Assembly: GCF_900110875.1 (NCBI RefSeq)
Contig: NZ_FOFM01000003.1
Coordinates: 310,001 to 374,000 of the forward strand
Length of the DNA stretch: 64,000 nucleotides
Reading direction: 5' to 3'
From: Pseudovibrio axinellae
GTDB taxonomy: Bacteria; Pseudomonadota; Alphaproteobacteria; Rhizobiales; Stappiaceae
Part shown: positions 23,987 through 50,552 of the stretch, piece after piece
Layout: each line of letters opens with the position of its first letter
Numbering within the stretch: the stretch's first letter is position 1
Program-made: the position numbers and the translations under genes
Notes under the pieces: generated by a model
What the model saw: only the letters and a program-made list of their open reading frames with translations
Told to the model about the DNA's origin: nothing
Database searches by the model: none

Positions 23987-26900
23987 ATGTCTAGCTTCAC
24001 AGAAGTCTTTGTGCGTCGACCCGTTATGGCATCGACCATCAGCCTTATGATCCTCGCATTAGGGTTGCGTGCAGCTTTTCTTTTGCCGGTATTGGAGTAC
24101 CCGAAGACAGAAAATACAGTCATCACAATCTCGACGACCTATTACGGGGCAAGTGCGGAGACTATAGCCGGTTTCATAACCACGCCGCTGGAAGAAGCAA
24201 TCGCGCAGGCGGAAGGCATTGATTATATGACCTCCACCAGCGCAAGCACCGTTAGCACGATCACTGTTAACCTGGTTCTGAACTACGACGCGGACAAAGC
24301 GCTGACCGAGATATCGGCACAAATTTCCTCGGTTATTGACCAATTGCCGCAACAAACTCAAAATCCGGTTCTGACCATTCAAGTGGGCGAAACCATCGAT
24401 GCGATGTATATCGGGTTCACCGCTGACGTGATCGACCGTAACCAGCTGACAGACTACATCTTGCGCGTCGTCCAGCCACAAATCCAGGCAATCGAAGGGG
24501 TGCAAACAGCGGAACTCATTGGCGAAAAGCGCTATGCCATTCGGGTCTGGCTGGACCCGGGCAAATTGGCAGCCTATAGCCTGACAGGAACAGACGTCGC
24601 AAACGCGTTGGCTCAAAACGATTTTATCTCTGGTGTCGGTAAATCCAAAGGACAGATGGTTCAGGTGGAACTGACAGCAAACACTAACCTGACAGACGTT
24701 GAACAATTCAGGCAGCTGGTGGTTCGGCAAAGCGGTTCAGCGATTATTCGCCTTCAGGATATAGGGCAAGTCGTGCTTGGCTCGGAGGACTACGATAGCG
24801 CAGTCCTCTACAGCGGCAAACAAGCGGTCTATATCGGTGTGCAGGCCGCACCAGCGGCAAATGTCCTGGCGATGCTAGATGAAGTCCGCGCTTTGATACC
24901 TCAAATTCAAGATGCAATGCCTCCTGGTCTGGAAGTGCGTGTCGTGTATGATTCCGGCCTTTTTATTGATGCAGCGATCGATGAAGTGATCAGCGCATTG
25001 GTCGAAGCATTGCTCATCGTGACTGTTGTGATCTTCTTGTTTATCGGGTCATTGCGCACCGTTGTCATTCCGGTGATTGCTATCCCCCTCTCACTGGTGG
25101 GAACGTTCTTTATCATGTTAGTGCTGGGGTACTCCATCAACTTGCTGACATTGTTGGCACTCGTGCTTGCAATCGGCTTGGTGGTGGATGATGCGATCAT
25201 TGTCGTGGAAGACGTTGAGCGGCATATTGCAGAAGGCAGCACCCCGACCATGGCTGCAATTCAGGCAGGGCAGGACCTTGGACGGCCTATCCTGGCAATG
25301 ACAGCAGTGCTGGTTGCAGTGTACGCCCCCATCGGCTTTCAGGGAGGGCTGACGGGCGCTCTGTTTACTGAATTTGCTTTTACTGTTGTTGGGGCGGTGA
25401 CCATTTCGGCGCTCGTAGCACTTACCCTAACGCCTATGATGAGTTCCAAAATCCTCAAAGCCAGGTCTGAGAAGTCCAGCGGTTGGGACGAAACATTCAC
25501 CCGCACAGTCGATGATATTTATGACAGGTTCAGGAGCAAGTACCTTCGCTTGCTCGAAGCTTCGCTGGATAACAAGGTCGTTGTTCTCACGTTCGCCGCG
25601 TTGATCCTCACTTCTATTCCCTTCCTGTATGGAACAAGCAAGCAGGAGCTGGCGCCTCAGGAAGATCAGGGCTTGGTGCTGGCACAGTCCACGCCAGCAC
25701 CGTCTGCCACGTTGCAGCAAAAGCTCTTGTACGCTGAAGAAATTTACCGCAATGCCGCTAAGTATTCAGAGACCGAGGGTGTATTCCAGCTGATCTTAAG
25801 CAGCAGCGTCCTCTCCGGTATTTTGCTGACCCCATGGGACGAACGCGATAAAACCGCAACGCAGCTGCAATATTCCATGCAAACCCCGATGCAAGCTATC
25901 GCAGGCCTGAAAACTGTGATGTTCCAGAACCCGCCCTTGCCGGGCAGTAGTGGCTTGCCGGTTCAATTCGTTCTCAAGACCACTCAAAGCGTCGAGAAAC
26001 TCAATCTGGTTGGCAGCCAGTTGCTCACCAAAGCCCAGGAAACCGGGAAGTTCGTGTTTATTGATAAGGACCTGAAGATAGACAGACCGCAGGGCCAGAT
26101 TCTCATAGATAGGGACCTGACAGCAGAGTTGGGGCTCACTATGTCAGACGTGGGTTCAGCTCTGACAAACTTGATGAGTGGTGGTTACATCAACTATTTC
26201 GATTTTGATGGGCGCTCATATAAGGTTATTCCGCAGCTCATTCAGTATGATCGCCTCAATCCCGAACAGCTGTTGGACACTTACATCCGCACCAGCAATG
26301 GCTCGGTCGTTCCACTGTCGACCATTGCAACCATAGAGACCACAGCAACACCGGAGTTTATTCCGCACTTCCAGCAGCAAAATTCAATGACGTTGTCAGG
26401 CGTTCCCAATTTCGGAATTCCGCTCGCAGAAGCCCTCACCACCTTGCAAGGGTTAGCTGCGGACGAATTGCCTGTAGGTTATGCGGTTGATTATGCGCAG
26501 CAATCGCGCCAGTTTGAGCAGGAATCTGATAGCTTTATCGTGACGTTTGCGTTTGCCTTGCTCATCATTTTTCTCACCCTTGCAGCACAGTTTGAGAGCT
26601 TCCGTGATCCCATAATCATTCTCGTCTCGGTCCCCATGTCGATTGCAGGCGCGCTGTTCTTCATCAATATTGGAATAGGAGGCGCAAGCATTAATATCTA
26701 CACCCAGGTGGGCATCATCACGCTGATGGGGTTGATTTCCAAGCACGGTATTTTGATCGTGGAAGTTGCGCGTGAACTGCAAGAAAATCAGGGTGCAAGC
26801 AAAAGAGAAGCTGTTATCGGCGCGTTGCATGTGCGCCTTCGCGCAATTTTGATGACAACAGCCGCTATGGTCCTCGGTGTTATCCCTCTTGTGCTGGCAA

Positions 26901-27097
26901 GCGGAGCAGGTGCCGCCTCTCGTTTCAATATGGGCCTGGTGATCGCCACAGGTCTTTCCATCGGAACACTCTTCACGCTTTTCGTCGTGCCCAACGTGTA
27001 CATGCTGATTGCACAAGATCGCTCAAAAAATAGGCAACCCGATGATATTGCGAAGGAAACGCCAAAAGGAGATGGTGAGCCAGACCCCGCTCAATAA
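23987..27097 (+). CDS. RND multidrug efflux pump (AcrB/MexB type)
   Basis: A 1036-residue hydrophobe/amphiphile exporter, 12 membrane helices with two large periplasmic loops. Proton-relay residues are visible: adjacent Asp401-Asp402 in GLVVDDAIIVVEDVERH (helix 4) and Lys919 in GLISKHGILIVEVAREL (helix 10). Together with the adaptor and outer membrane factor upstream it forms a complete tripartite pump driven by the proton gradient, exporting drugs, detergents or bile-salt-like compounds. GGGAGG precedes the start. No TetR-type repressor is adjacent, so regulation is unknown. Confidence 0.95.
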   Translation: MSSFTEVFVRRPVMASTISLMILALGLRAAFLLPVLEYPKTENTVITISTTYYGASAETIAGFITTPLEEAIAQAEGIDYMTSTSASTVSTITVNLVLNYDADKALTEISAQISSVIDQLPQQTQNPVLTIQVGETIDAMYIGFTADVIDRNQLTDYILRVVQPQIQAIEGVQTAELIGEKRYAIRVWLDPGKLAAYSLTGTDVANALAQNDFISGVGKSKGQMVQVELTANTNLTDVEQFRQLVVRQSGSAIIRLQDIGQVVLGSEDYDSAVLYSGKQAVYIGVQAAPAANVLAMLDEVRALIPQIQDAMPPGLEVRVVYDSGLFIDAAIDEVISALVEALLIVTVVIFLFIGSLRTVVIPVIAIPLSLVGTFFIMLVLGYSINLLTLLALVLAIGLVVDDAIIVVEDVERHIAEGSTPTMAAIQAGQDLGRPILAMTAVLVAVYAPIGFQGGLTGALFTEFAFTVVGAVTISALVALTLTPMMSSKILKARSEKSSGWDETFTRTVDDIYDRFRSKYLRLLEASLDNKVVVLTFAALILTSIPFLYGTSKQELAPQEDQGLVLAQSTPAPSATLQQKLLYAEEIYRNAAKYSETEGVFQLILSSSVLSGILLTPWDERDKTATQLQYSMQTPMQAIAGLKTVMFQNPPLPGSSGLPVQFVLKTTQSVEKLNLVGSQLLTKAQETGKFVFIDKDLKIDRPQGQILIDRDLTAELGLTMSDVGSALTNLMSGGYINYFDFDGRSYKVIPQLIQYDRLNPEQLLDTYIRTSNGSVVPLSTIATIETTATPEFIPHFQQQNSMTLSGVPNFGIPLAEALTTLQGLAADELPVGYAVDYAQQSRQFEQESDSFIVTFAFALLIIFLTLAAQFESFRDPIIILVSVPMSIAGALFFINIGIGGASINIYTQVGIITLMGLISKHGILIVEVARELQENQGASKREAVIGALHVRLRAILMTTAAMVLGVIPLVLASGAGAASRFNMGLVIATGLSIGTLFTLFVVPNVYMLIAQDRSKNRQPDDIAKETPKGDGEPDPAQ

Positions 27098-27259: not shown

Positions 27260-27334
27260 TGGGGTGTAGCCAAGTGGTAAGGCAACGGTTTTTGGTATCG
27301 TGTACCGTAGGTTCGAATCCTACCACCCCAGCCA
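27260..27334 (+). tRNA. tRNA-Gln (TTG)
   Basis: A 75-nt cloverleaf. The acceptor TGGGGTG pairs with CACCCCA. The D arm has TAGCCAAGTGGTAAGGC. The anticodon stem ACGGT/ATCGT encloses TTTTGGT, giving anticodon TTG. The T arm is GTAGG TTCGAAT CCTAC, followed by discriminator G and encoded CCA. Confidence 0.95.
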
Positions 27335-27552
27335 GCTTTCTCATTAAACGATTGAAGTGATTACTAAATTTCAAAACCAAACGGTTTGAAATTGAGCCTT
27401 TTTGCGTTGCGGTAATACACGGTGTGTTCCTCGGACCTTTTCGAGGATAAGATGGCAACGTACTTACTCTCCAAATATTACCGGACCAATGCGCAAATTC
27501 CAGTTGGCTTCTTTAGGCAGGGTTGCTTGCGGTGTTTCAAGATGAAGCTGGG

Positions 27553-28503
27553 TTATATCTTTGGAAACTCACCCAGAGAGTAGAGTGGTTCCCCTTGTTT
27601 CACTAGGATACTATCCATCATATATAAAAGCACGCCATTGCTCATACTCAGGACTGGCTGTGCCTCCTTGTCAAAGAACTCCTTTGTGTATCCCACCGTC
27701 TCGTTTTTCTGCAAGGTTTGGCCTGTTCGAGCTTTTGGATACCAGAGCACATCTGTTTTCGCGATCTCCGAACGAAGCTCGACTTCGTGAGGACATTCAT
27801 AGTGCTGCTGTTCAACCACGCTGGATGTCATGCCTAAGAATGACAGCACCCGTCGTACCCCCAGCGACAGCGCTTCCACATGATCGCGGTCTACATGACC
27901 GCACTCTCCTCCTTCTGCGATTAACCCTGCGCAGTCATAGGAGGTTGCAGCGGTCGTGGTTACCCCATTGAGGTTGGTGCCTAATTTATAAGGTAAGCCG
28001 AAAACATCAGCCAACTCGCTGCTTTTGGGGTTGTCTTTATGGAAGATGCAAAACGGCAGTAAACGTTCAACCATATTGCCTGAGTGCAGATCAAGATGCA
28101 CATTAGCATGCCTAGTAAATTTCTCGCTGATATATTGAGCAATTACCTGACTCTCGCTCCCCTTAAGGTCTCCTGGAAATACCCTGTTGAAGTTTTTATT
28201 GTCCGCCGGATTATAGGTGATTGAGCGTTGCCAGAAGCCCTTCCAGTTTATGAGCGGCAGGATGGCCAGGGTCCCTCTTATCACGGCGGGTTGATTCAAA
28301 ATCAGATCATAGGCGGCTTCTATTGATGTGTACTCTGTGGGGTGAAGGCCGGCTGTTACGAGTGCCGTGGGGCCATCCTTTTCGCCACGCAGGAGGAAAA
28401 AAGGAAGAAAGTACTCGTCAATGGTGTCTATATAAAAGTATCCGCTGGACTGCCCTGTAGGTAGACTGTTCAAGTCCAGGCTATCCAAGTTAACCTTCAA
28501 CAT
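27553..28503 (-). CDS. AstE/AspA-like zinc hydrolase of the five-gene operon
   Basis: A 316-residue member of the succinylglutamate desuccinylase/aspartoacylase family (M14-like). Zinc ligands are expected at His54 and Glu57 in GLHPTEYTS and at His140 in HLDLHSGN. NKNFNRVFPG matches the substrate-binding Arg motif, and Glu197 or Glu200 in LIAEGGECG is the likely catalytic base. Relatives remove acyl groups from amino acids (AstE, AspA, DoeB). The ATG at 28503 begins one nucleotide after the upstream transporter stop, with AAGGG before it; a TTG at 28524 is less likely. It is last in an overlapping five-gene operon. The substrate is unknown and may be an N-acyl amino acid intermediate. Confidence 0.8.
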   Translation of the reverse strand: MLKVNLDSLDLNSLPTGQSSGYFYIDTIDEYFLPFFLLRGEKDGPTALVTAGLHPTEYTSIEAAYDLILNQPAVIRGTLAILPLINWKGFWQRSITYNPADNKNFNRVFPGDLKGSESQVIAQYISEKFTRHANVHLDLHSGNMVERLLPFCIFHKDNPKSSELADVFGLPYKLGTNLNGVTTTAATSYDCAGLIAEGGECGHVDRDHVEALSLGVRRVLSFLGMTSSVVEQQHYECPHEVELRSEIAKTDVLWYPKARTGQTLQKNETVGYTKEFFDKEAQPVLSMSNGVLLYMMDSILVKQGEPLYSLGEFPKI

Positions 28504-28504
28504 T

Positions 28505-29440
28505 TCATCGACCCTTTCTATCAAACCAGTTCGCTGTGAGCTTTTCGCCGTAAAAACCGCAGACCGAGCCTGCGATCATCATACCCACTCCGATGAGGGC
28601 AGTCGGTGTCCAGGTGTAGCTTTCAAAAATAGTGGAGAGCAAAAGGGCAACAATTGGAAACAGTATGGCTGCAAAAGCAGCTTTTTCAGGACCTGTATTT
28701 TTTACGAGGCTTAAATACAGAAGATAGGCGATGGCAGTGCAAAAGATGGAAAGGTAGAGCAGGGAAGATAAGTAGGAAAAGGACAATGGAATTGCGAAAC
28801 TACTCCCCTGCGCCAAGATTATAGCAAGGCAAAAAGCGGAGCCATACCACAGTCCATATGTGGTTGATGTAAGAACTGGAACGTCTTTCTTGCTAAACCG
28901 GACAGAAATCATATTGCCAAGTGAAACTAAAAAGGTAGCCAGAAAAGCAAGTATGACCCCATGAAGTCTTGCCAAAGTTTCATGTTGCAGAAATATTTCC
29001 TTATAGAATAAAAGTATAACTCCTATAAAACTCATAAGACCCCCGGCAATAATAGGTAGTTTTATTTTTGTTCCAAAGAATAGTCTGTCATTGAAGCTAT
29101 TCATAAAAATAATAGTAGAAAATATTACTGAAACAAGACCGCTTTCGATGTTTATAATGGAATTATAAAATAGGTAGTAGTTAAAGGAGAACAGAAAAAT
29201 CCCAAGCAATAGGAGGTAAATATGATCCTTAATTGAGAATTCAGGAGCGCTCCGCCACCTCTGATAAACGAGTGCTAAGAAGATTGCAGAGATGAGGGCC
29301 CGATAAAATATGGAGACCAAAATAGGGGTTGAGCTGAACTGGAATCGGATCGAAATCCACACGGTTCCCCAGATTATGACGGTAGAACACAGCAGGAAGA
29401 AGTTGAATTTCTTAGAGGGTTGTGAAACGGAAAGTGACAT
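28505..29440 (-). CDS. EamA/DMT-family transporter of the five-gene operon
   Basis: A 311-residue membrane protein with about ten hydrophobic helices arranged as two EamA repeats (the first about 10-145, the second about 165-300). Repeat 1 begins with STVIIWGTVWISIRFQF, the usual EamA opening. DMT proteins export amino acids and metabolites; here the likely cargo is the product of the surrounding enzymes. The start overlaps the upstream racemase-like gene by 29 nt. The DNA is strikingly AT-rich for this window, hinting at foreign origin, although membrane-protein codon choice contributes. Confidence 0.85.
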   Translation of the reverse strand: MSLSVSQPSKKFNFFLLCSTVIIWGTVWISIRFQFSSTPILVSIFYRALISAIFLALVYQRWRSAPEFSIKDHIYLLLLGIFLFSFNYYLFYNSIINIESGLVSVIFSTIIFMNSFNDRLFFGTKIKLPIIAGGLMSFIGVILLFYKEIFLQHETLARLHGVILAFLATFLVSLGNMISVRFSKKDVPVLTSTTYGLWYGSAFCLAIILAQGSSFAIPLSFSYLSSLLYLSIFCTAIAYLLYLSLVKNTGPEKAAFAAILFPIVALLLSTIFESYTWTPTALIGVGMMIAGSVCGFYGEKLTANWFDRKGR

Positions 29441-30407
29441 AAGGTGACATCATTAATCTGTTCAGGGAATAGTAGTTGAGCTGGAATACAACTGTACCTC
29501 TGACCTTCGGCTCCCAACTACTATCTCTCGATAGTACCAAATGATCGCTAAAGGCATGCTCAACTTTCACTCCATTGGGACAGATAAGGTCATTGGGGTT
29601 AACATCGCATAGCCCAATAGGGATAATAAGCTGCCGTCCTTTCTCTTGCATTATGTCCACCTCAAGGTGGAAGGTATTTTGCGATAACCCTTCTATCTTT
29701 TGGTTTCCAACAGAGGAGGAGATACCAAGTAATATGGCTGTTCCTAAGCGGTACTCATCAAGGGAAGCCAACAAATGGGGCTCTTTGTAAAGGGTGCCAA
29801 AGCACAATGAAGAGCCAACCGACAACCTGAGATAGTTCAGTTGCAGGTCTGCCATAAGTGCCTTTCGAAGGTCGCAGATCTGCTCGAAGGTAGCTTGATA
29901 GTGCTCAGACGTTTCCTCATTGCTCAAATAGCACGCTATGCTGTCAAGCTGCGTATAGGGAGAGCCTCTGATGAGCTCTGCAGCAGCTCTAAGTGCGCTC
30001 AACTCAAACCCTTCGCGGCCGTGACCGACATCAGCGATCAAACCTAGCTTATGGCTTTTTTTAAGTGTGTGGCAGCTGTTTATTGTCTCCGCGATCGTTG
30101 CCTGCGTACAATGAAAGGAGCTGTCTGCATACTGAACCGTTTCTGGAATTTCCGCGAGGGAAGGCGGGCGCATCAGGCAGAGTTCAGCTTTGTTTTGGTA
30201 AGTGCCCCGCAGCTGAATAATGTTCTTAAGTCGGGAGTCTCCAAGAGAGTACAGTCCCTCTTGTAAGAAGATGTCACATATTTTCTGGTTTGCACGAAGT
30301 GACTTTGTAACAACCATAGTCGTTACGTCATGCTTCTTTAAAAACTGCGAGAGAACACGGGTGTTATGACGAATACTTTCCTTGTCACAAACCAGATTTA
30401 TTGTCAT
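29412..30407 (-). CDS. Alanine/ornithine racemase-like PLP enzyme
   Basis: A 331-residue PLP-barrel protein resembling the alanine/ornithine racemase family (YhfX and ornithine racemase Orr). The Schiff-base residue is probably Lys35 in VVTKSLRAN. GDSRLKNI, LIADVGHGREGF and SVGSSLCFGTLY correspond to conserved barrel motifs of that group. A racemase or epimerase of a basic or neutral amino acid is the best guess, not catalysis in the AlaR two-domain manner. Its ATG overlaps the upstream dehydrogenase stop as TAATG, and its own stop lies inside the transporter gene, so translation is tightly coupled. Confidence 0.72.
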   Translation of the reverse strand: MTINLVCDKESIRHNTRVLSQFLKKHDVTTMVVTKSLRANQKICDIFLQEGLYSLGDSRLKNIIQLRGTYQNKAELCLMRPPSLAEIPETVQYADSSFHCTQATIAETINSCHTLKKSHKLGLIADVGHGREGFELSALRAAAELIRGSPYTQLDSIACYLSNEETSEHYQATFEQICDLRKALMADLQLNYLRLSVGSSLCFGTLYKEPHLLASLDEYRLGTAILLGISSSVGNQKIEGLSQNTFHLEVDIMQEKGRQLIIPIGLCDVNPNDLICPNGVKVEHAFSDHLVLSRDSSWEPKVRGTVVFQLNYYSLNRLMMSPYVTFRFTTL

Positions 30408-31576
30408 TATGTATCCAGTAAACTATCTAGATCACAGTATTTGAAGCCCTTTTTCTCGGCTGTGTAGGGGTGAGTTATATGTCCTTGGAAACAGACCACA
30501 CCGTTTTTTAAGTATGCATCCTCCTGAAGTGCCTCAACTATTCCTTTGTTTGCAATGGAGCGCACATATTTGAATGTAGTATCGGTCAAAAGTTTGGTGG
30601 CTGTGGCGGGAACACGTGCAGGGATGTGGTCACAATTATAATGGACGACACCCATTTGTGTAGAGGTCTCCTCCAAAAGGGGGGAGGAGATACAGGTCTC
30701 AAGGAGATCCTGGTCACACGCGGTCGCATCACAAACAATGCTGCCTGGCGCCATTTTTGCAATCATCTCCTTGCAAACCAGAAATTCTAGTTTTTCTTTG
30801 GGCATATCGGGCCTGCGCACGGCGCAGTTCAATAATATATCCAGCTCTGGCATAAGCGCTGCAAGTTCCTGAACGGTTTGCTCCGGCTGATTGACGCTCA
30901 TGACGAGGCTGCGAAATCGGTCTGGGTCAGGGGCGCCATCACCAAAGCGGTCACGAAGCTTTTTGCTTAGTTGTTCTGCACCGCCCTTCGTAAGGACAGT
31001 CAAATTTACATTTAAGTCTGCGAAATATTTTATGGCGGACAGGCCGATATTCCCTGCGCCAATAACCAGCACATTGCCGCCAGGTAAGAAGCGTTCGTTC
31101 GCAGGAAGAAAGACACCTTTGTTTAGTGCGGACAACTCAATAGATTTTTGGGCGAAGAGGTATCCTGTAAGGCGGCTCATTGGCTCTAGTAATGGGTAGT
31201 GCTGGTCGCCCCCGACCCACTCATAGGCGATGCCCATTACACCAGATGTGAGGAAGCGCTGAATGGTGGGAGCAGGAATATTCTCATCCAGATGAAGGTA
31301 GGTGAACAGGATCTTGTCCTGATCGTAATCCTCATACTCTTCTTCTAAGGGCGCCTTCACTTTTAAGAGAAGCTTTCCTGCCCGTATAACCTGGGCTTTC
31401 GGCCTTACAAGCGCGCCGCAGTCCAGATAGTTCTGGTCTGAAAAGCCTGATGCGAGCCCGGCCCCCTCCTCGACATAGACTTCATGTCCATCCCGAGAAA
31501 GGGTACTGGCTTGATCAGGGCGCAAAGCAACACGTAATTCGTCTGGTTTAATTTCCTTTAGGACAGAGATTCTCAT
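30407..31576 (-). CDS. Alanine dehydrogenase/opine dehydrogenase-like oxidoreductase
   Basis: A 389-residue protein of the AlaDH/PNT superfamily. The N-terminal domain (VLKEIKPDELRVALRPDQ, then EGAGLASGFSDQNY) is typical, as is Lys in LLLKVKAP. The Rossmann fold has VLVIGAGNIGLSA, and a C-terminal half follows with DATACDQ. Relatives include alanine dehydrogenase, saccharopine dehydrogenase and N5-carboxyethyl-ornithine synthase, so it could reductively aminate or couple an amino acid with a 2-oxoacid. It overlaps the desaturase-like gene by 29 nt and the racemase-like gene by 1 nt. The ornithine-racemase-like neighbour makes the opine reading attractive, but this is inference. Confidence 0.72.
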   Translation of the reverse strand: MRISVLKEIKPDELRVALRPDQASTLSRDGHEVYVEEGAGLASGFSDQNYLDCGALVRPKAQVIRAGKLLLKVKAPLEEEYEDYDQDKILFTYLHLDENIPAPTIQRFLTSGVMGIAYEWVGGDQHYPLLEPMSRLTGYLFAQKSIELSALNKGVFLPANERFLPGGNVLVIGAGNIGLSAIKYFADLNVNLTVLTKGGAEQLSKKLRDRFGDGAPDPDRFRSLVMSVNQPEQTVQELAALMPELDILLNCAVRRPDMPKEKLEFLVCKEMIAKMAPGSIVCDATACDQDLLETCISSPLLEETSTQMGVVHYNCDHIPARVPATATKLLTDTTFKYVRSIANKGIVEALQEDAYLKNGVVCFQGHITHPYTAEKKGFKYCDLDSLLDT

Positions 31577-32720
31577 CCGGCGTTTTCCCGTGACTTTTGA
31601 TCATCGTAGTTCTTAAGTAACTAATTGCACTCAAAGACTTTTTCGAGTTGAAGAACAAACCGCGTGATGTGTTTTTTCCATACTCAGGCATATTATCGAT
31701 AAGCAGCTGATCGGCCGCGCCCAGATAACTCCACCGCAAGTAAGGAAACAGCGAGTGGGCTAAATGATGATTATCACCGATAGGGAAAATGCTGTTCCTG
31801 ATGATGGCACCGCTAATTCCCTCGTAAAGAGTTGGCCGGCAACTTGTCAGTTCCCTCTCTAAAGGGTCCATGCCGTCCACATTTTCAAACCAGCGATGCT
31901 CAACAACCTGAGAGAACCAGTAGAATTGTGGAAACACAATGAGAAGTGGGATTAAGTAAAACATCAAGAAGCCATAACCCCACCCAAGCAACAGGAATGG
32001 TGCGATTGTGGCCACAATACCAACGATCCGAAGGGTGAGGCGATAGGGCGACGTCAGATCCCTCTTGAAATGAGAGAGAATGCCACGGCACCGCTCATAG
32101 ATACCCTTGGGTGTGCAGGGGTGAAAAACCCCAAGCCAGAACTTAAATTTCGAAATTCCAGGTACAAACCCAATTTCAATAAAGTCACGTAGGCCGGGAT
32201 CGACGTCAAGCAAGTTGGCATTGGGGTGATGCAACACGCAATGTCGATGCCGCCGTTCCTCAGCAGAGGACATTAAAGCGGGGAACTGGAATAACGAATC
32301 GGCAAGTAGAATCTGACTTTTTTTGCTTCCACCAAGTATGCCATGGATCGCCATGTGTCCCAGCTCTTCCAGGGCGCGCAGTTGGCTGCAAATCACCCAG
32401 ATAGTAAGCAAATCGAAGACAAAAAGCTGGATGTGAAAGGCGAGACCGATCATGCCGATGATCACCAGCCAGTGGCCTACAAACTGAATAGGGCCAAGGA
32501 TGCTATCAAGCTTCTTGGGCCTGTAATGGCTAAAGGCACGTCTTGCGGCATGTATGTCTGTGACGCCTTTTAAGCCAGCGATTTTTCGACATTCATTCAG
32601 ATGATATAGGGGGTCAAGAACGAATGCGACTAATCCTAATGCTATAAGGAGCACGAAAAAGTAATCGGTCATCACTTCTGTCCAAGTATTTTTGTTTTCT
32701 TGGTCCTTCTTAGGGACCAC
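31548..32720 (-). CDS. Fatty-acid-desaturase-like di-iron membrane enzyme
   Basis: A 390-residue protein with about four to five hydrophobic spans and the His-box layout of membrane di-iron desaturases and hydroxylases. Box 1 is ELGHMAIH (His122, His126). Box 2 is HRHCVLHH (His160, His164-165). Later ones are VVEHRW and GDNHHLAH. It would use O2 and electrons to desaturate or hydroxylate a chain or amino-acid side chain. The substrate is not predictable, and no ferredoxin or reductase is adjacent. The GTG at 32720 has AGGGG 8 nt upstream; an ATG at 32672 is the alternative. It is the first gene of the overlapping operon, 229 nt downstream of argP. Confidence 0.75.
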   Translation of the reverse strand: MVPKKDQENKNTWTEVMTDYFFVLLIALGLVAFVLDPLYHLNECRKIAGLKGVTDIHAARRAFSHYRPKKLDSILGPIQFVGHWLVIIGMIGLAFHIQLFVFDLLTIWVICSQLRALEELGHMAIHGILGGSKKSQILLADSLFQFPALMSSAEERRHRHCVLHHPNANLLDVDPGLRDFIEIGFVPGISKFKFWLGVFHPCTPKGIYERCRGILSHFKRDLTSPYRLTLRIVGIVATIAPFLLLGWGYGFLMFYLIPLLIVFPQFYWFSQVVEHRWFENVDGMDPLERELTSCRPTLYEGISGAIIRNSIFPIGDNHHLAHSLFPYLRWSYLGAADQLLIDNMPEYGKNTSRGLFFNSKKSLSAISYLRTTMIKSHGKTPDENLCPKGN

Positions 32721-32949
32721 TGAAAATACCCCTACGTTAGTATCAGAGCAACAATCTAGAGGTTGTTGGTGAAGTGCTTTACCTCTCGATAGGTGTTTAC
32801 ACGCATATATCCGAGATATATCATGGGTTTATGGGTGAGGTTATAGAGCTGAATTAGAGAGTTTATGGCCAGATTGCTGACGGTCGGAATGAAAAACATT
32901 TTCAGCCTGTCACGACCACAGTTTAGCAGCGGCGACGCGTGGCGCGGTC

Positions 32950-33834
32950 CTAGCCTGTGAGTGCATTCTTCGCAGTTGTTCGCACGGCTTTTGTGAGAGG
33001 CTTTATGGTGTGGGCAGTTGAACGGCTGATATGCCAGTAGAGCTGCGTTTCGTAAGCTGTGTTGGGGATGAGCTCCACCAGTTTGCCCTGGTCAATCAAC
33101 GGCTGGGCCAAAACCTGCGGGTTCATGCCCCAGCCGATGTGATTGACTGTGGCGTCGATGAAACCGTGACTGCTGGCAAGCCAATGGCAATTGGGAATGA
33201 ACACTTCCCCAAAAACCAACTTAAGCCACTCGGTCTGCAATGTGTCCTTGTTGTTATAGGTAAGTGAGGGAGCACGCTTAAGTGCCTCTAGCGTCACGCC
33301 CTTTGCAAACCACTTCTCCATAAACTCTGGACTGGCGGTGGCTTGGTAGCGCAGCGCTCCCAGTGGGAAGCAGTCACAACCTTGGATGGGAGCAGACTCT
33401 GAGCTGACAGCGGCTTGAACCTCTCCGCGGCGCAGCCAGTTTGCACTGTGCTCTTGATCATCGATCTTCAAATCGAAGAGAAACCCGTCCACCTGCGCCA
33501 GCGCGCCAATAAACCATGTGGCGAGGCTGTCAGCGTTAACGGCGATTTGAAGACTGGCAAAGTCGCTTGTTTCGCTCGTAAAGCCGATTTCTTCTTTGGT
33601 CTGCTTTTCCAGCAACGCGACTTCATTGGCATGGCGTAGCAACCGCTCGCCTTGTGCGGTCGCGGTGCAGGGGTGCCCGCGTATCACCAGGAGGCAGCCC
33701 AGTTTCTCTTCCAGCGCCTTAAGCCTTTGGGAGATGGCAGACTGCGTAACACCAAGGTGTTGTGCGGCCTTCTCAAACGTTCCGGTAGTCAAGATAGATG
33801 CAAGAGCCATCAACTGGGAGCGGTCAAAGTACAT
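32950..33834 (-). CDS. argP: ArgP-type LysR regulator
   Basis: A 294-residue LysR-family regulator of the ArgP (IciA)/LysG type. The winged helix begins MYFDRSQLMALASILTTGTFEKAAQHLGVTQSAISQRLKALE, and a periplasmic-binding-like effector domain follows (about 90-290). ArgP activates a basic-amino-acid exporter in response to Arg or Lys, and here the exporter is divergent with a perfect inverted repeat between them. The ATG at 33834 matches the family N-terminus; the open frame extends 102 codons further through the exporter promoter and is not coding. It also lies upstream of the five-gene operon on the same strand. Confidence 0.9.
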   Translation of the reverse strand: MYFDRSQLMALASILTTGTFEKAAQHLGVTQSAISQRLKALEEKLGCLLVIRGHPCTATAQGERLLRHANEVALLEKQTKEEIGFTSETSDFASLQIAVNADSLATWFIGALAQVDGFLFDLKIDDQEHSANWLRRGEVQAAVSSESAPIQGCDCFPLGALRYQATASPEFMEKWFAKGVTLEALKRAPSLTYNNKDTLQTEWLKLVFGEVFIPNCHWLASSHGFIDATVNHIGWGMNPQVLAQPLIDQGKLVELIPNTAYETQLYWHISRSTAHTIKPLTKAVRTTAKNALTG

Positions 33835-33852
33835 TAGTCTCTCTAATGACAG

Positions 33853-33876
33853 ATTATAACTATTAATTTTTATAAT
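33853..33876. promoter_or_regulatory. Candidate ArgP operator
   Basis: ATTATAA (33853-33859) and TTATAAT (33870-33876) make a perfect inverted repeat with a 10-nt spacer, in the divergent promoter between argP and the exporter. The AT-rich spaced dyad is compatible with LysR-type binding. Confidence 0.5.
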
Positions 33877-33934
33877 GAAGCGGTCCGATGTAGTCAAGCT
33901 GACAGGTACCCACGCACGACACCAAGGAAATAGA

Positions 33935-34540
33935 ATGTCGCTCACATCAGTCGCCGCTTCTGGCTTTACGCTTGGATTAAGTTTGATTTTCGCAATTGGC
34001 TCGCAAAATGCCTTTGTCCTGCGACAAGGCCTGCGCGGAGAACATGTGTTGTTAACCTGTCTCACATGTGCTCTCAGCGATGCGTTGCTGATTACTGTTG
34101 GTGTCAGCAGTCTTTCGGTTTTGTCGGCCCAGCTTCCCATGCTGGAACCGGTAATGCGGTTTGGCGGTGCTGTGTTCCTTACAGTTTATGGTTTGCGCAG
34201 CGCTATCTCTGCCTACAAGGGCGGTGCGTCCCTCACGCCGAACGAGAGTAAAACCGGTGGTGCCTTGGGCACACTTGTGATCGTCTTATCTCTCACCTTC
34301 CTGAACCCGCACGTTTATCTCGATACAGTTCTACTCGTTGGCTCCATTGCAAGTCGTTATGTGGGCGCAGAGTACATATTCGGGCTTGGCGCTGTCGCAG
34401 CCTCTTTTGTGTTCTTTTTTGCGCTTGGGTACGGGGCCAAATTGTTGCGTCCTGTCTTTGCAAACCCAACCTCATGGAGAATTCTGGACGGGCTTATTGC
34501 GCTCATAATGTGGGCTATAGCCATCAGTTTGCTGGCCTGA
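33935..34540 (+). CDS. argO: LysE/ArgO-type basic amino acid exporter
   Basis: A 201-residue membrane protein with about six helices and the ArgO/LysE motifs FAIGSQNAFVLRQGLRG and LTFLNPHVYLDTVLL. It exports arginine, lysine or analogues such as canavanine. The ATG at 33935 is supported by AAGGAAAT and by the family N-terminus; an upstream in-frame start at 33875 overlaps the operator. Regulation by the divergent ArgP is likely. Confidence 0.9.
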   Translation: MSLTSVAASGFTLGLSLIFAIGSQNAFVLRQGLRGEHVLLTCLTCALSDALLITVGVSSLSVLSAQLPMLEPVMRFGGAVFLTVYGLRSAISAYKGGASLTPNESKTGGALGTLVIVLSLTFLNPHVYLDTVLLVGSIASRYVGAEYIFGLGAVAASFVFFFALGYGAKLLRPVFANPTSWRILDGLIALIMWAIAISLLA

Positions 34541-34767
34541 TCTGAAACAGCAGCACATTAATTTGCCGCCCCCTAAAAGGCCTGCAACCTGTCATTGCTG
34601 CGTTAAACAAGAGGCGTATACCAAGAATTGCAAAACACTATAGTATCCGCCCCTTGAATGATTGAGTTGAGACAACCTGATGGGCGAGTTCTTAAAACGA
34701 CGAAACAGCAGGAGTGTTGCAACCAGATCGGCTCAATGAAAAACCGGCCTTTTATAGGGGGAGACCG

Positions 34768-45801: not shown

Positions 45802-46734
45802 CTAGTAAAATGTGGTCTCCCCTGCATCCACAGCGATTGATGTGCCTTTCTGCCCCAAGATGGCTTGCGGAACTTCCGAAAGGGTGCAGATAATGGCTTT
45901 CTTTCCTGTTTTACGGGCGAAGGTTTGTGCGGCTTCCACTTTGGGACCCATCGATCCGGCTGCAAAGCCATAAGCATCGAGTGCATCTGGGGAGGCTGAT
46001 CGGATTGCTCGTTGGCTTGGGGTGCCCCAATCCAAATAAACGGCATCAGCATCTGTTGCCATAACGTAAATGTCAGCTTCGATCTCTTTAGCAAGCAGTC
46101 CAGAGCACCTGTCTTTGTCGATAACGCACTCGACACCGACGAGTTTTTTCTCTTCGTTATACATGGTTGGAATACCGCCACCACCAGCTGCAATTACAAG
46201 TACATCATGGTCAAGCAGCCACTTGATCGGCCTTATCTCGAAGATCTGTTTTGGCATTGGGCTTGGGACAACGCGCCTCCACTTATCTCCATCCTCTCGG
46301 ATGGACCAGCCTTTTTCCTTGGCAAGTTTGTGGGCTTCTTCCTTGGTGTACAGTGGGCCAATTGGTTTGGTAGGATCTTTAAAAGCCGGATCCGTGGGGT
46401 CCACTTCGACCTGTGTGAGTATTGTGGCGAATGGCTTTTCAAATGGCAGAAGGTTTCCTAGCTCCTGCTCAATCATGTAACCAATCATGCCGACGGTTTC
46501 AGCTCCCAACACATCAAGGGGGTAGGTTTCTACCTGCTCGTAGGCTGCACCTTGTAAGGCCAATAGTCCAACCTGTGGGCCATTTCCATGCGTGATGACA
46601 ACATGATGTCCATTACCGCAAAGCGGAGCGAGCGCTTCAGCAGCAATACGAGCGTTGTTCCTTTGGTTTTCGGCGGTCATTGCCTCTCCGCGTCGCAGAA
46701 GAGCATTGCCGCCAAGAGCGACGACAACACGCAT
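45802..46734 (-). CDS. arcC: Carbamate kinase ArcC
   Basis: A 310-residue amino acid kinase-fold enzyme converting carbamoyl phosphate and ADP to ATP, CO2 and ammonia. Motifs are [68 protein letters not shown] and [13 protein letters not shown], all conserved in carbamate kinases. Its start overlaps the arcB stop by one nucleotide. It supplies the ATP-yielding step of the arginine deiminase pathway. Confidence 0.96.
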
Positions 46735-47738
46735 TACCGGCCTCCAATCGTGGCAACCATGATGGCTTTGATGGTGTGAAGTCGGTTCTCCGCTTGTTCA
46801 AATGCCAGATTACGGTCTGACTCAAAGACGTCGTCTGTGACTTCCATCTCTGAAATGCCAAACTTCTGGAAAATATCCTCGCCGACCTTCGTCTCGCGGT
46901 TATGGAATGCTGGCAAGCAATGCATGAAGAACGTATTCGAATTTCCAGTGCCTTCCATCAGCTCTGTGTTGACCTGATAATCGCGAAGCAGCTTAATCCG
47001 AGTTTCCCAAACATCTGCAGGTTCACCCATGGAAACCCATACATCGGTGTGAATGAAATCGACACCTTCGGTTCCCTTTTTAGGGTCGTCGGTGATTGTT
47101 ATACGCGCTCCGTAGCGCTTCGCATTTGCTTCAGCGATTTTGAGTACATCTGGCTCAGGTTGAAGTTCTTTGGGAGCAACTATGCGTACGTCACATCCGC
47201 ACAGTGCACCAAGCATCAAGAGTGAGTTGCCCATGTTGTTGCGCGCGTCGCCCATATAAGCGAATGAAATCTCATGCAGAGGTTTTGAACTATGCTCGGT
47301 CATTGTAAGCATGTCGGCCAGCATCTGCGTTGGATGCCAGTCGTCTGTGAGACCGTTGTAGACCGGAACACCTGCAAATTCAGAAAGCGTTTCAACGGCC
47401 TTTTGCCCTGAGCCACGAAACTCGATTGCATCAAACATACGGCCAAGGACACGTGCAGTGTCTTTCATGGATTCCTTATGGCCGATTTGTGAGCCGGATG
47501 GATCCAAATATGTGACATGGGCACCTTGATCGTGAGCTGCAACCTCAAATGCACAGCGTGTGCGGGTTGAGGTCTTTTCAAAGATCAGACAAATGTTTTT
47601 TCCAACAAGTGTCTGCCGTTCTGATCCAGAGTATTTAGCTCGTTTGAGGTCACGGGCGAGGTCTAGCATGAAAAGGACTTCACGTTGGCTGAAGTCTTTT
47701 AGCTTGAGGTAACTGCGACCTTTAAGGTTGAAAGCCAT
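46734..47738 (-). CDS. arcB: Catabolic ornithine carbamoyltransferase ArcB
   Basis: A 334-residue enzyme splitting citrulline with phosphate to ornithine and carbamoyl phosphate. Conserved elements are [15 protein letters not shown] (carbamoyl-phosphate loop), [45 protein letters not shown] and MHCLPAFHN. Presence between arcA and arcC, and the length, indicate the catabolic rather than biosynthetic enzyme. ArcB and ArcC overlap by one base; arcA lies 55 nt upstream. Confidence 0.96.
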
Positions 47739-47793
47739 TGTTCTTACTCTCCATCTCTTGGATGTTCTTGTTGTTCAACGGAGGTTGAGAAGA

Positions 47794-49020
47794 CTAGAAT
47801 TGAACCGATTCTCGAATTGTGGGGCATGTCATGCAATGGCCGCCGCCGCGCCCACGACCGAGCTCTGAGCCGTCAATGGCAATGACTTCAACGCCCGCAC
47901 GTTGTAGCTTCGAGTTTGTGTAGGTGTTTCGACGATATGCGACGACGACTCCAGGTTCGATGCAGACAACGTTGTTGCCATCGTCCCATTGTTCGCGCTC
48001 TTGATCGTATGCGTTGCCGCCTGTGGTCACGACGTTCAACTTTTTAATGCCAAGTGAGTCAGCAACCACATCGAACAAATGACCATCTTCCTGCCGGTAG
48101 TCTACTGACTCGGGCGTGTCACCTGGACGAATGGAGAAACAAATGATTTCGTCACAGACACCAGTGAAAGCGGTTGCTTTATCACGGTCAAGAAGCGTGA
48201 AGACGGTATCCAGATGCATTGCAGCGCGGCTCTTTGGCATCTGACAGGCAATCACACGGGTGGCTGCATCGTTGCGGAATAAAGCACGTGCCACCTGACC
48301 CACAGCTTGCGGCGTTGTCCGCTCTCCCATGCCGATCAAAACCACGCCATTGCCAATTGGCATTACATCCCCGCCCTCTACGGTGGATTCGTGGAAGTTC
48401 TTAGCGGGGTCGCCCCACCAGAAATTCACTTTACCTTTGAAGTGGGGGTGATGCCTATAGATCGCTGTGGCCAGCAACGTTTCGTTTTGCCGAGCCTGCC
48501 AAAACATGGGATTAAGTGTCACCCCGTTGTAAATCCAGCACGTCGTATCTCGCGTAAAGAGCGTGTTTGGTAACGGTGGGATGACGAAATCATTCGGCTC
48601 AAGATAGCTGCCAAATACGCCTGTCGGCTGGAAGCCAAGCTCACACCTTGCGATGCCACCGATGAGATGGTCTGCAAGAAATTTCTCTGGCTGTTCAAAG
48701 AGCCATGCGCGCAGATCCTCTGCCATACCATAGCCGACACGATGGTGCGTGACACGGTGTTCTAACACCCACTTCCGAGCTTCGGGGTCCTCAAGCGTTT
48801 CGGTTAGGAGATTGTGCATCTCCAGCACGTTCACACCACGCTCCTCCATTCTAAGGCAGAAGTCGTAATGGTGCTTTTGCGCCTCCCGCACCCAGATGAC
48901 ATCGTCAAACAAGAATTCCTGACAGTTGCCGGGAGTAAGGCGCATATGCGCCAATCCGGGACGGCAAACCAATACTTCTTTTAGTTTGCCAACTTCTGAA
49001 TGGACACCAAATTCAGTCAT
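47794..49020 (-). CDS. arcA: Arginine deiminase ArcA
   Basis: A 408-residue guanidino-group hydrolase converting arginine to citrulline and ammonia. Catalytic features are [12 protein letters not shown] (Asp), [25 protein letters not shown] (Glu and Asp), [12 protein letters not shown] (His) and the nucleophile Cys396 in [11 protein letters not shown]. The length matches the family. GGAG precedes the ATG at 49020. It is the second gene of the operon, 131 nt after the YfcC-type carrier. Confidence 0.97.
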
Positions 49021-49151
49021 GTTGCAGGCTCCGTTCCAAAATTCTTATGTTTGCGAGGTTGATCCCTCTTTGTGTCAGTTCAAAGGTTTGTTCTGTGCCT
49101 CTCTGGCGTGCCCGTTTGCGGTGGCGACCCCGCAATCTTGGGAGGTCGTCC

Positions 49152-50552
49152 TTAAACGCTAAGGGAAAGGGCGAGAGAGATTAGGACGAACAGGATAACG
49201 ACGAGCGGGATCGCGAAGCGAAGCCATTTATCGTAAGGTACGCGGCCAATCGCCAACCCTCCCATCACAACAGCGAACGTGGGGTTGAACAGGTTCAACA
49301 GTCCACTAGCAGACTGGAAGGCTGTGACAACAAGCTCGGCGCCAACATTTGAGAACCCTGCCAATGGTGCCATGATCGGCATGGATAAAACAGCAAGGCC
49401 AGACGAAGATGGAACGAAGAATGAAAGCACAAGTTCAAGCCAGAACATGACATTAATAAAGGCGACTTTGCTCAGACCGCTCACGGCCTGTTCGGACCAG
49501 TAAAGAACAGTGTCTGTTATGGACCCGGCGTCCATCACAACCACGATACCGCGTGCAACGCCAATGATCAGTGCAACGCCAAGCAAGTCTCTAGCGCCAT
49601 CAAGGAAGTTATCGACGAATTCGTGTTCACCTTGCCGAGCAACAATACCCACCAAAATTGAGGCAGCCAGGAAGAGCGCAGACATTTCACCCATCCACCA
49701 GCCAAGGGCTGCCACGCCATAGATCAGCAGCGCAAAGGTGAACACGAAGATTGCCATAATCCAACCGTGCTTATGGGTGAAGTCTGGAATGTCCTCTTTG
49801 GAAACGCCTTGGAGAAAGTGCTTTTCGTTTTCTTCCTTCATCTCCGCAACGAGGGAGGTTGTGTGGTCTGCTTTGACTTTAGCAGCGTAACGCATCACCC
49901 AAGCTACACAGATCAGCCATCCAACGATCAAAATCAGGAAACGAAGTATGATGCCATCGGTGAAAGGAACGCCAGCAGCGTTGGAAGCGATCACTGTTGC
50001 AAATGGATTAATTGTAGAGCCAAGCGTACCCATACCTGCACCGAGCATGATAACGGCTACACCTGTCATTGAATCATACCCGGCGCGGATCATGACGGGA
50101 ATAATGAGAGCGTAGAACGCAAGGCTCTCCTCCGCCATCCCATATATCGTGCCTCCTGCTGCAAAGAAGGCCATCAATATAGGGATCATGAGGTTCTCTC
50201 GCCCCTTTAACGCCGTCATGACTTTTGCAATTCCGGCATCAATCGCACCAGTGCGTGTAACGACCATAAGAAAGCCACCAATTACAAGCACGAAGGCGGC
50301 AACATCAATCGCGTTGGCTGTATATGAGATTGGGTCATACAACCCTGCAATTGGGGCCATGAATACTTCAACAGGCCCTTGCGGGTTGGCCTCCACCAAA
50401 TGGTAAGTTCCCGGTACTGGGACTTCTTTTTCCAACACTGGATTGACAACCCGGTCATATTTACCTGCGGGCACAAACCAGGTCGCAAGTGCAACCAAAA
50501 TGATAAGACCAAATAGAATTGTAAATGCGGTTGGAAATTTGAACTTCGACAT
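49152..50552 (-). CDS. YfcC-family carrier, probable arginine/ornithine transporter
   Basis: A 466-residue integral membrane protein of the YfcC/DcuC-like C4-dicarboxylate carrier superfamily, about 11-13 helices. It opens KFKFPTAFTILFGLIILVALATWFVPAGKYDR, the YfcC signature, and has GAGMGTLGSTINPFATVIAS and VPSSSGLAVLSMPIMAPLA. It stands directly before arcA where other bacteria carry ArcD, so arginine:ornithine exchange is the best inference; the family itself does not prove the substrate. A possible FNR-type site lies about 125 nt upstream. Confidence 0.82.
   Translation of the reverse strand: MSKFKFPTAFTILFGLIILVALATWFVPAGKYDRVVNPVLEKEVPVPGTYHLVEANPQGPVEVFMAPIAGLYDPISYTANAIDVAAFVLVIGGFLMVVTRTGAIDAGIAKVMTALKGRENLMIPILMAFFAAGGTIYGMAEESLAFYALIIPVMIRAGYDSMTGVAVIMLGAGMGTLGSTINPFATVIASNAAGVPFTDGIILRFLILIVGWLICVAWVMRYAAKVKADHTTSLVAEMKEENEKHFLQGVSKEDIPDFTHKHGWIMAIFVFTFALLIYGVAALGWWMGEMSALFLAASILVGIVARQGEHEFVDNFLDGARDLLGVALIIGVARGIVVVMDAGSITDTVLYWSEQAVSGLSKVAFINVMFWLELVLSFFVPSSSGLAVLSMPIMAPLAGFSNVGAELVVTAFQSASGLLNLFNPTFAVVMGGLAIGRVPYDKWLRFAIPLVVILFVLISLALSLSV

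What the first reader, a model, noticed from the sequence alone, without database searches (positions are those of the whole stretch)
27553..32720. Overlapping five-gene operon for an unknown amino-acid-derived compound
The genes are a desaturase-like di-iron enzyme, an alanine/opine-dehydrogenase-like enzyme, an ornithine/alanine-racemase-like PLP enzyme, an EamA exporter and an AstE/AspA-like zinc deacylase. Successive genes overlap by 29, 1 and 29 nt, then a 1-nt gap, so translation is tightly coupled. The family set suggests making or modifying an amino acid (perhaps a carboxyalkyl-ornithine or lysine), desaturating or hydroxylating it, deacylating an intermediate and exporting the product. 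I know of no described pathway with this set. An ArgP/ArgO-type pair sits immediately upstream, which fits a basic amino acid theme.
Basis: partly seen in the sequence, partly recalled or inferred. Interest (0 to 1): 0.75.

Follow-up and report, generated by a model that had tools for sequence, protein, structure and literature searches.

The report
Orphan ornithine-type amino-acid operon
Five tightly packed genes, inserted next to a tRNA gene in one bacterial strain, probably make, trim and export an unusual amino acid built from ornithine or arginine, but no second genome with the same set was found, so the product is unknown.

Summary
Five intact minus-strand genes (32720 to 27553) overlap by 29, 1 and 29 nt, then a 1-nt gap. 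Pfam confirms the families, but all five fall far below the NCBIfam equivalog cut-offs. No second genome with the set was found. With argP/argO it occupies a strain-specific segment (about 27,349-34,598) beside tRNA-Gln, where congeners carry other genes.

Best reading: an oxidised, exported, ornithine/arginine-derived amino acid (0.5). The ArgP/ArgO link is not supported. Substrate, step order and product are inferred.

The parts
31548..32720 (-). gene 1: membrane FA_desaturase-family di-iron enzyme (GTG start); best NCBIfam model is GntB arginine hydroxylase
   Evidence: Pfam FA_desaturase 63.9 bits; GntB 77.8 bits, cut-off 380; eight His invariant across 5 aligned sequences
30407..31576 (-). 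gene 2: AlaDH/PNT-fold NAD(P)-dependent oxidoreductase of an unnamed subfamily
29412..30407 (-). gene 3: ornithine/alanine-racemase-like PLP protein lacking a ~28-residue loop present in the five relatives aligned
   Evidence: Ala_racemase_N; Orr 127 bits, cut-off 480; alignment A4
28505..29440 (-). gene 4: EamA-family exporter
   Evidence: Pfam EamA, two stretches, 103.7 bits
27553..28503 (-). gene 5: AstE/AspA-family zinc deacylase-like enzyme (alternative TTG start at 28524)
   Evidence: AstE_AspA_cat 80.6 bits; DoeB 72.4 bits, cut-off 402.7; H60, E63, H146, E203 invariant in 4 sequences
27349..34598 (.). strain-specific segment with the operon plus argP/argO, between tRNA-Gln and an AMP-ligase gene; borders approximate
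   Evidence: comparison with 7 congeneric loci
27260..27334 (+). tRNA-Gln (anticodon ttg), left border of the variable segment
32950..33837 (-). argP (LysR family), exact start not settled; in the same segment, link to the operon not supported
33935..34540 (+). argO/LysE-type exporter gene, divergent from argP

Best explanation
A strain-specific five-gene operon that makes and exports a modified amino acid derived from ornithine or arginine. Proposed steps, all inferred: the AlaDH-fold enzyme uses NAD(P)(H) on ornithine, most simply by reducing an imine to a secondary amine (a carboxyalkyl-ornithine, opine-like) or by oxidising or cyclising it. The Orr-like PLP protein sets or uses the alpha-carbon stereochemistry. 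The GntB-like membrane di-iron enzyme hydroxylates or desaturates the side chain. The AstE/AspA-like zinc enzyme removes an acyl or aminoacyl group. The EamA protein exports the product. Shown: gene anatomy, families, conserved metal and cofactor ligands, a distinct AlaDH-fold subfamily, and its linkage in some other genomes to arginine/ornithine-type genes. Not shown: substrate, reaction order, product, expression.
For: Tight overlaps and intact frames. The AlaDH-like protein is in a subfamily separated from AlaDH (support 100/100). R15, K74 and H95 are kept; the AlaDH Asp270 column is Cys in the window and 15 of 16 relatives and Asn in 1; R254, D288 and D316 are invariant in those 17 rows. 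Its gene is directly downstream of an arginine-dihydrolase-like gene in L042 and L045 (best PDB matches of the L042 protein are Sll1336 and Alr4995; NCBIfam Arg_dihydro 225 and 234.5 bits, cut-off 450), directly upstream of an arginase-like gene in L053 (210.8 bits, cut-off 227.6), and two genes from a saccharopine dehydrogenase in L051 (Pfam) and L052 (73% identical protein). Alr4995 is AgrE by recall; [quoted passage not shown] Best NCBIfam models: L-arginine hydroxylase for gene 1, ornithine racemase for gene 3, a diamino-acid deacetylase (DoeB) for gene 5. Genes that read as an arginine-deiminase pathway, an ornithine source, lie at 45802-50552 (by eye).
Against: The set was found nowhere else: none of the 17 subfamily loci carries another operon gene at tblastn E 1e-4, and none of their 17 genomes matched the desaturase (which had no positive control). 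In 12 of the 17 loci the dihydrolase, arginase and saccharopine-dehydrogenase proteins found no match at E 1e-6; five loci lie among polysaccharide-type genes and two plasmid relatives in apparently catabolic surroundings. The dihydrolase-like proteins also reach 214 bits on a dimethylargininase model with a cut-off of 300, a larger share of the cut-off than for arginine dihydrolase, so their product need not be ornithine. All named-enzyme labels of the five proteins are far below cut-off. The racemase-like protein lacks a loop present in the five relatives aligned. The deacylase's relatives lie beside a dipeptide-type ABC importer (L040) or peptidase genes (L041), which fits catabolism.
Confidence: 0.5

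Rival explanations
1. Salvage or detoxification operon: the deacylase frees a basic amino acid from an N-acyl conjugate, the AlaDH-like enzyme oxidises or cyclises it in the manner of AgrE, the racemase-like protein handles the D form, the di-iron enzyme oxidises the conjugate, and EamA exports surplus amino acid.
For: AlaDH-like relatives on Mesorhizobium and Methylobacterium plasmids (L038, L039) sit near FAD oxidoreductase, MmgE/PrpD and ABC transporter genes. A 35% relative of the deacylase follows a dipeptide-type ABC importer operon in Microvirga and another lies beside amidase and dipeptidase genes in Deinococcus. The nearest named deacylase, DoeB, is catabolic (role recalled). Arginine-dihydrolase and arginase are catabolic enzymes.
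Against: The operon has no importer gene; it has an exporter-type EamA protein and a GntB-like oxygenase, both more typical of biosynthesis (inference).
Confidence: 0.25
2. The genes form a transcription unit but not one pathway: unrelated cargo genes gathered at a tRNA-Gln hotspot.
For: No second genome with the set was found; gene GC differs (EamA 0.410, others 0.463-0.491), as if assembled from several sources; the hotspot holds different genes in congeners.
Against: Four successive junctions with 1-29 nt overlap or a 1-nt gap, and arginine/ornithine/diamino-acid hints in four of five proteins.
Confidence: 0.15
3. Envelope decoration: the AlaDH-like enzyme makes a carboxyalkyl amino acid that is attached to a glycan or lipid, and the desaturase acts on the lipid.
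For: Five of 17 subfamily loci (L050, L053, L056, L057, L058) lie among genes that read as polysaccharide or glycosyltransferase type (by eye); L050 and L056 share a 44% identical next gene.
Against: No glycosyltransferase, ligase or flippase gene was seen in this operon or its variable segment.
Confidence: 0.1

Closest known systems
AgrE/ArgZ arginine dihydrolase-ornithine cyclodeaminase (Alr4995, Sll1336)
   Same: Relatives of gene 2 sit next to an arginine-dihydrolase-like gene in two Bradyrhizobium loci, much as AgrE joins two activities in one protein
   Different: Gene 2 has the AlaDH fold and was not shown to be homologous to the AgrE C-terminal part; this operon has no dihydrolase gene
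L-alanine dehydrogenase
   Different: About 28-37% identity over the full length; 211 bits against a cut-off of 392; the Asp270 column is Cys and there is an insertion with Arg254-Arg255
Saccharopine dehydrogenase (Lys-forming) and the human AASS LOR/LKR domain
   Different: 16-19% identity; partial profile matches only (E 8.5e-8 to 3.6e-5)
N5-(carboxyethyl)ornithine synthase of lactococci (recalled, no call)
   Same: Recalled as an AlaDH/PNT-family enzyme that reductively joins ornithine and pyruvate
   Different: No sequence was in hand to compare; paper searches returned nothing
GntB L-arginine gamma-hydroxylase of the guanitoxin pathway
   Same: Best NCBIfam model of gene 1; membrane FA_desaturase-type
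   Different: 77.8 bits against a cut-off of 380; 26% identity to the one cyanobacterial hit, which looks like GntB by its neighbours
Ornithine racemase Orr
   Same: Best NCBIfam model of gene 3; PLP lysine K35 kept
   Different: 127 bits against a cut-off of 480; 25-26% identity to the Ilyobacter and Acetoanaerobium relatives and a ~28-residue loop missing
DoeB / AstE-AspA zinc deacylases
   Same: HxxE, second His and Glu conserved; best model DoeB
   Different: 72.4 bits against a cut-off of 402.7

Membership tests
L-alanine dehydrogenase | NCBIfam TIGR00518 cut-off (391.85 bits) | tested here: not met
   211.4 bits; the four relatives scanned also stay below, L057 nearest at 300.2
L-alanine dehydrogenase | Asp270 (M. 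tuberculosis numbering; a D270A mutant structure is listed; its catalytic role is recalled) | tested here: not met
   Column holds Cys287 in the window, Cys in 15 and Asn in 1 of 16 relatives, Asp in 12 of 12 AlaDHs; sequence alignment only
L-alanine dehydrogenase | AlaDH/PNT fold with R15, K75, H96 (roles recalled) | tested here: met
N5-(carboxyethyl)ornithine synthase | Reductive condensation of ornithine and pyruvate | not testable with these tools
   No reference sequence fetched; activity needs an assay
Saccharopine dehydrogenase / LKR | Sequence and fold match over the full length | tested here: inconclusive
GntB arginine hydroxylase | NCBIfam NF041365 cut-off (380 bits) | tested here: not met
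   77.8 bits
FA_desaturase membrane di-iron family | Histidine boxes for two irons (roles recalled) | tested here: met
   H122, H126, H160, H164, H165, H275, H319, H322 invariant in 5 sequences
Ornithine racemase Orr | NCBIfam NF040742 cut-off (480 bits) | tested here: not met
   127 bits
Ornithine racemase Orr | PLP-binding lysine (role recalled) | tested here: met
   K35 invariant in 6 sequences
Ornithine racemase Orr | C-terminal loop of about 28 residues (DAFGNKP region in Orr) | tested here: not met
   Gap in the window protein only; loop present in the other 5, of which 2 lack the DAFGNKP letters
AstE/AspA zinc deacylase | HxxE, second His, catalytic Glu (roles recalled) | tested here: met
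   H60, E63, H146, E203 invariant in 4 sequences
Conserved biosynthetic gene cluster | Same gene set in more than one genome | tested here: not met
   Operon partners in 0 of 17 subfamily loci; single-gene searches found no close relative; samples, not all genomes

The most novel reading that the evidence does not exclude
The operon makes a new natural product in which an uncharacterised AlaDH-fold subfamily, found in Hyphomicrobiales, Thiotrichales, a cyanobacterium, Planctomycetota, KSB1 and Thorarchaeota, acts on ornithine as a reductive condensing or cyclising enzyme, and a membrane di-iron oxygenase then functionalises the side chain: a new NRPS-free route to an exported ornithine-derived antimetabolite or signal.
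Probability: 0.3. Interest if true: 0.7.

Novelty: new variant of a known kind. Interest (0 to 1): 0.5.

Why it matters
If true, it gives an unnamed subfamily of AlaDH-fold enzymes (two plasmid members are annotated 'hypothetical protein') a testable substrate, ornithine, and adds a small NRPS-free cluster type that signature-based cluster finders would probably miss (inference). It also shows a tRNA-Gln hotspot where congeneric strains carry different metabolic genes.

Tried and rejected
Alanine dehydrogenase for gene 2: rejected on score, tree and the Asp270 column. Conserved pathway by co-occurrence: not found. ArgP/ArgO as functional partner: not supported, since the pair occurs elsewhere without the operon. 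Integration by tRNA-end duplication: the window holds only one copy of the tRNA-Gln 3' end, although congener L091 has a 34-nt, 94% repeat of that region; the insertion mechanism is open. Desaturase in phages: no match. A single-sequence AlphaFold model of the racemase was useless (pLDDT 38.9) and was not interpreted. No solved-structure match by sequence for the desaturase (E up to 1) or the racemase (E up to 0.1). Best relatives elsewhere: desaturase 34% in plasmids and 26-33% (some partial) in the class, gamma and cyanobacterial samples; racemase 27% in plasmids and at most 28% in the class sample; deacylase 34-37% in plasmids, its only search. EamA was not searched across genomes. Of the 13 other congeneric genomes with an RND match I fetched 7. 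The surroundings of L044 and L055 were not read; they were covered only by tblastn.
Full report
OBSERVATION. Five intact genes read leftward from 32720 to 27553. Overlaps are 29, 1 and 29 nt, then a 1-nt gap. Families were confirmed by Pfam. Against NCBIfam each protein's best model is far below its cut-off: GntB 77.8 of 380 bits, alaDH 211.4 of 391.85, Orr 127 of 480, 2A78 72.1 of 230.2, DoeB 72.4 of 402.7. So the families are known and the specific functions are not. Conserved residues fit active enzymes: eight His of the desaturase (5 sequences), Lys35 of the racemase-like protein (6 sequences), H60, E63, H146 and E203 of the deacylase (4 sequences); their roles are recalled from the families.

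RARITY. AlaDH-like protein: in 61 genomes (own plus 60 relatives, 15 of them of the same genus) no other full-length match exceeds 37% identity (one partial match is 40%), the level of ordinary AlaDH; at E 1e-50 only the own genome matched, 1 of 297 in the order. Desaturase: 12 of 385 genomes of the class at E 1e-3 including the own, best other E 2.9e-6; 1 of 369 in the class of a Thiotrichales genome (27%); 1 of 146 in the phylum of a Spirulina genome (26%); 38 plasmid records, best 34%; none in phages. Racemase-like: 13 of 367 genomes of the class including the own at E 1e-8, none of the others above 28%. These are samples, not whole clades.

GENOMIC COMPANY. Directly upstream in two Bradyrhizobium loci (L042, L045; 71% identical to each other) is an arginine-dihydrolase-like gene. 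PDB best matches of the L042 protein are Sll1336 and Alr4995 (E 5.6e-53 and 8.6e-53). NCBIfam gives Arg_dihydro 225 and 234.5 bits (cut-off 450) and bifunctional ArgZ 223.5 and 236.4 (cut-off 1025), but also a dimethylargininase model at 214 of 300 for both, so the reaction is not settled. [quoted passage not shown] that Alr4995 is AgrE is recalled. An arginase-like gene (Pfam 201.7 bits; NCBIfam 210.8, cut-off 227.6) follows in Planctomycetota L053. A saccharopine dehydrogenase gene is two genes on in L051 (Pfam) and, by 73% identity to that protein, in L052. That is 5 of 17 loci; in the other 12 tblastn with these three proteins found nothing at E 1e-6. Methyltransferase genes lie near L046, L048 and L049. 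Genes that read as polysaccharide type surround L050, L053, L056, L057 and L058 (by eye). L044 and L055 were not read by eye. Some flanks are short (L054 4.7 kb, L056 7.9 kb).

NO CO-OCCURRENCE. tblastn of all five proteins against 26 loci (L033-L058) at E 1e-4 found only the AlaDH-like gene in the 17 subfamily loci, and the desaturase found no match in their 17 genomes (that tool warns that an empty answer without a positive control shows nothing). That does not disprove one pathway, but nothing comparative proves it.

ISLAND. Of the 13 other genus genomes with an RND match I took 7. In 7 of 7 the RND gene and tRNA-Gln are adjacent as in the window. The AMP-ligase gene follows in 5 of 7; L089 reaches its contig end and L087 shows no ligase homology in 15 kb. 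Between them lie other genes, by eye: a GntR, DapA-like and TRAP-type set in L088, a permease, kinase and dehydrogenase-like set in L091, related sets in L090 and L093, and about 1 kb in L092. The window's variable segment is about 27,349-34,598. Operon genes are AT-rich (GC 0.410-0.491, against 0.516-0.545 for RND, ligase, argP, argO, PutA and arcA). The genus is not named by the tools; Pseudovibrio is my guess from genome size and GC.

ARGP/ARGO. Of 16 genus genomes, 6 have an ArgP match at E 1e-60 including the own; three are 76-78% identical and two 39-42%. The three have ArgO at 74-75% beside it, and no operon gene, RND gene or ligase gene in the 18-19 kb taken.

HOST CONTEXT. Genes that read as carbamate kinase, ornithine carbamoyltransferase, arginine deiminase and an antiporter lie at 45802-50552 (by eye), a possible ornithine source; their conservation was not tested.

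MECHANISM. Hints in four of five proteins (genes 1, 2, 3 and 5) point to ornithine, arginine or a diamino acid. I place the AlaDH-fold step on ornithine, oxidation by the GntB-like enzyme, and trimming and export by the last two genes. Whether the AlaDH-fold step condenses (opine-like), oxidises or cyclises cannot be told. The racemase-like protein lacks a loop of about 28 residues present in the five relatives aligned, so its role is the weakest. A catabolic or salvage reading remains a serious rival: the deacylase's relatives lie beside a dipeptide-type importer (L040) and peptidase genes (L041), and two plasmid relatives of gene 2 in catabolic-looking clusters.

LITERATURE. Nine searches listed no paper describing this set; most subscription papers are not in the library. 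PMC10367076 (passages) names GntB as a transmembrane enzyme making the linear precursor that GntC cyclises. PMC13185094 (passages) concerns an unrelated di-iron acetylenase that acts on the C-terminal arginine of a tripeptide. The rhizobitoxine papers were seen only as a listing.

CHECK.

Noticed in passing
L033 (Pantoea ananatis plasmid), L034 and L035 (Mycetohabitans megaplasmids): A shared cluster of about 10-12 genes with a desaturase 31-34% identical to gene 1, two DegT aminotransferases, Gfo/Idh oxidoreductase, HAD, NUDIX, an MTA-phosphorylase and an MFS gene; looks like a small-molecule cluster found both on a plasmid of an onion isolate and in fungal endosymbionts.
   Followed up: no
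window 27335-34755 and L088, L090-L093: The tRNA-Gln to AMP-ligase interval holds different genes in different congeners; L091 carries a 34-nt, 94% repeat of the tRNA 3' end region about 4.7 kb downstream.
   Followed up: partly
L050:2979-3968 and L056:6044-7060: A gene of about 330 residues directly after the AlaDH-like gene in two unrelated genomes, 44% identical; no Pfam match for the L050 protein; ATP-grasp-like by eye.
   Followed up: partly
window 23987-27097: The RND gene: six congeners match only residues 1 to about 780 in one piece; in the four of them compared by DNA (L090-L093) the alignment breaks at window 26287-26348 with extra DNA in the relatives.
   Followed up: no
L062: The cyanobacterial hit of gene 1 lies in a gene order resembling the guanitoxin cluster (by eye).
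   Followed up: no
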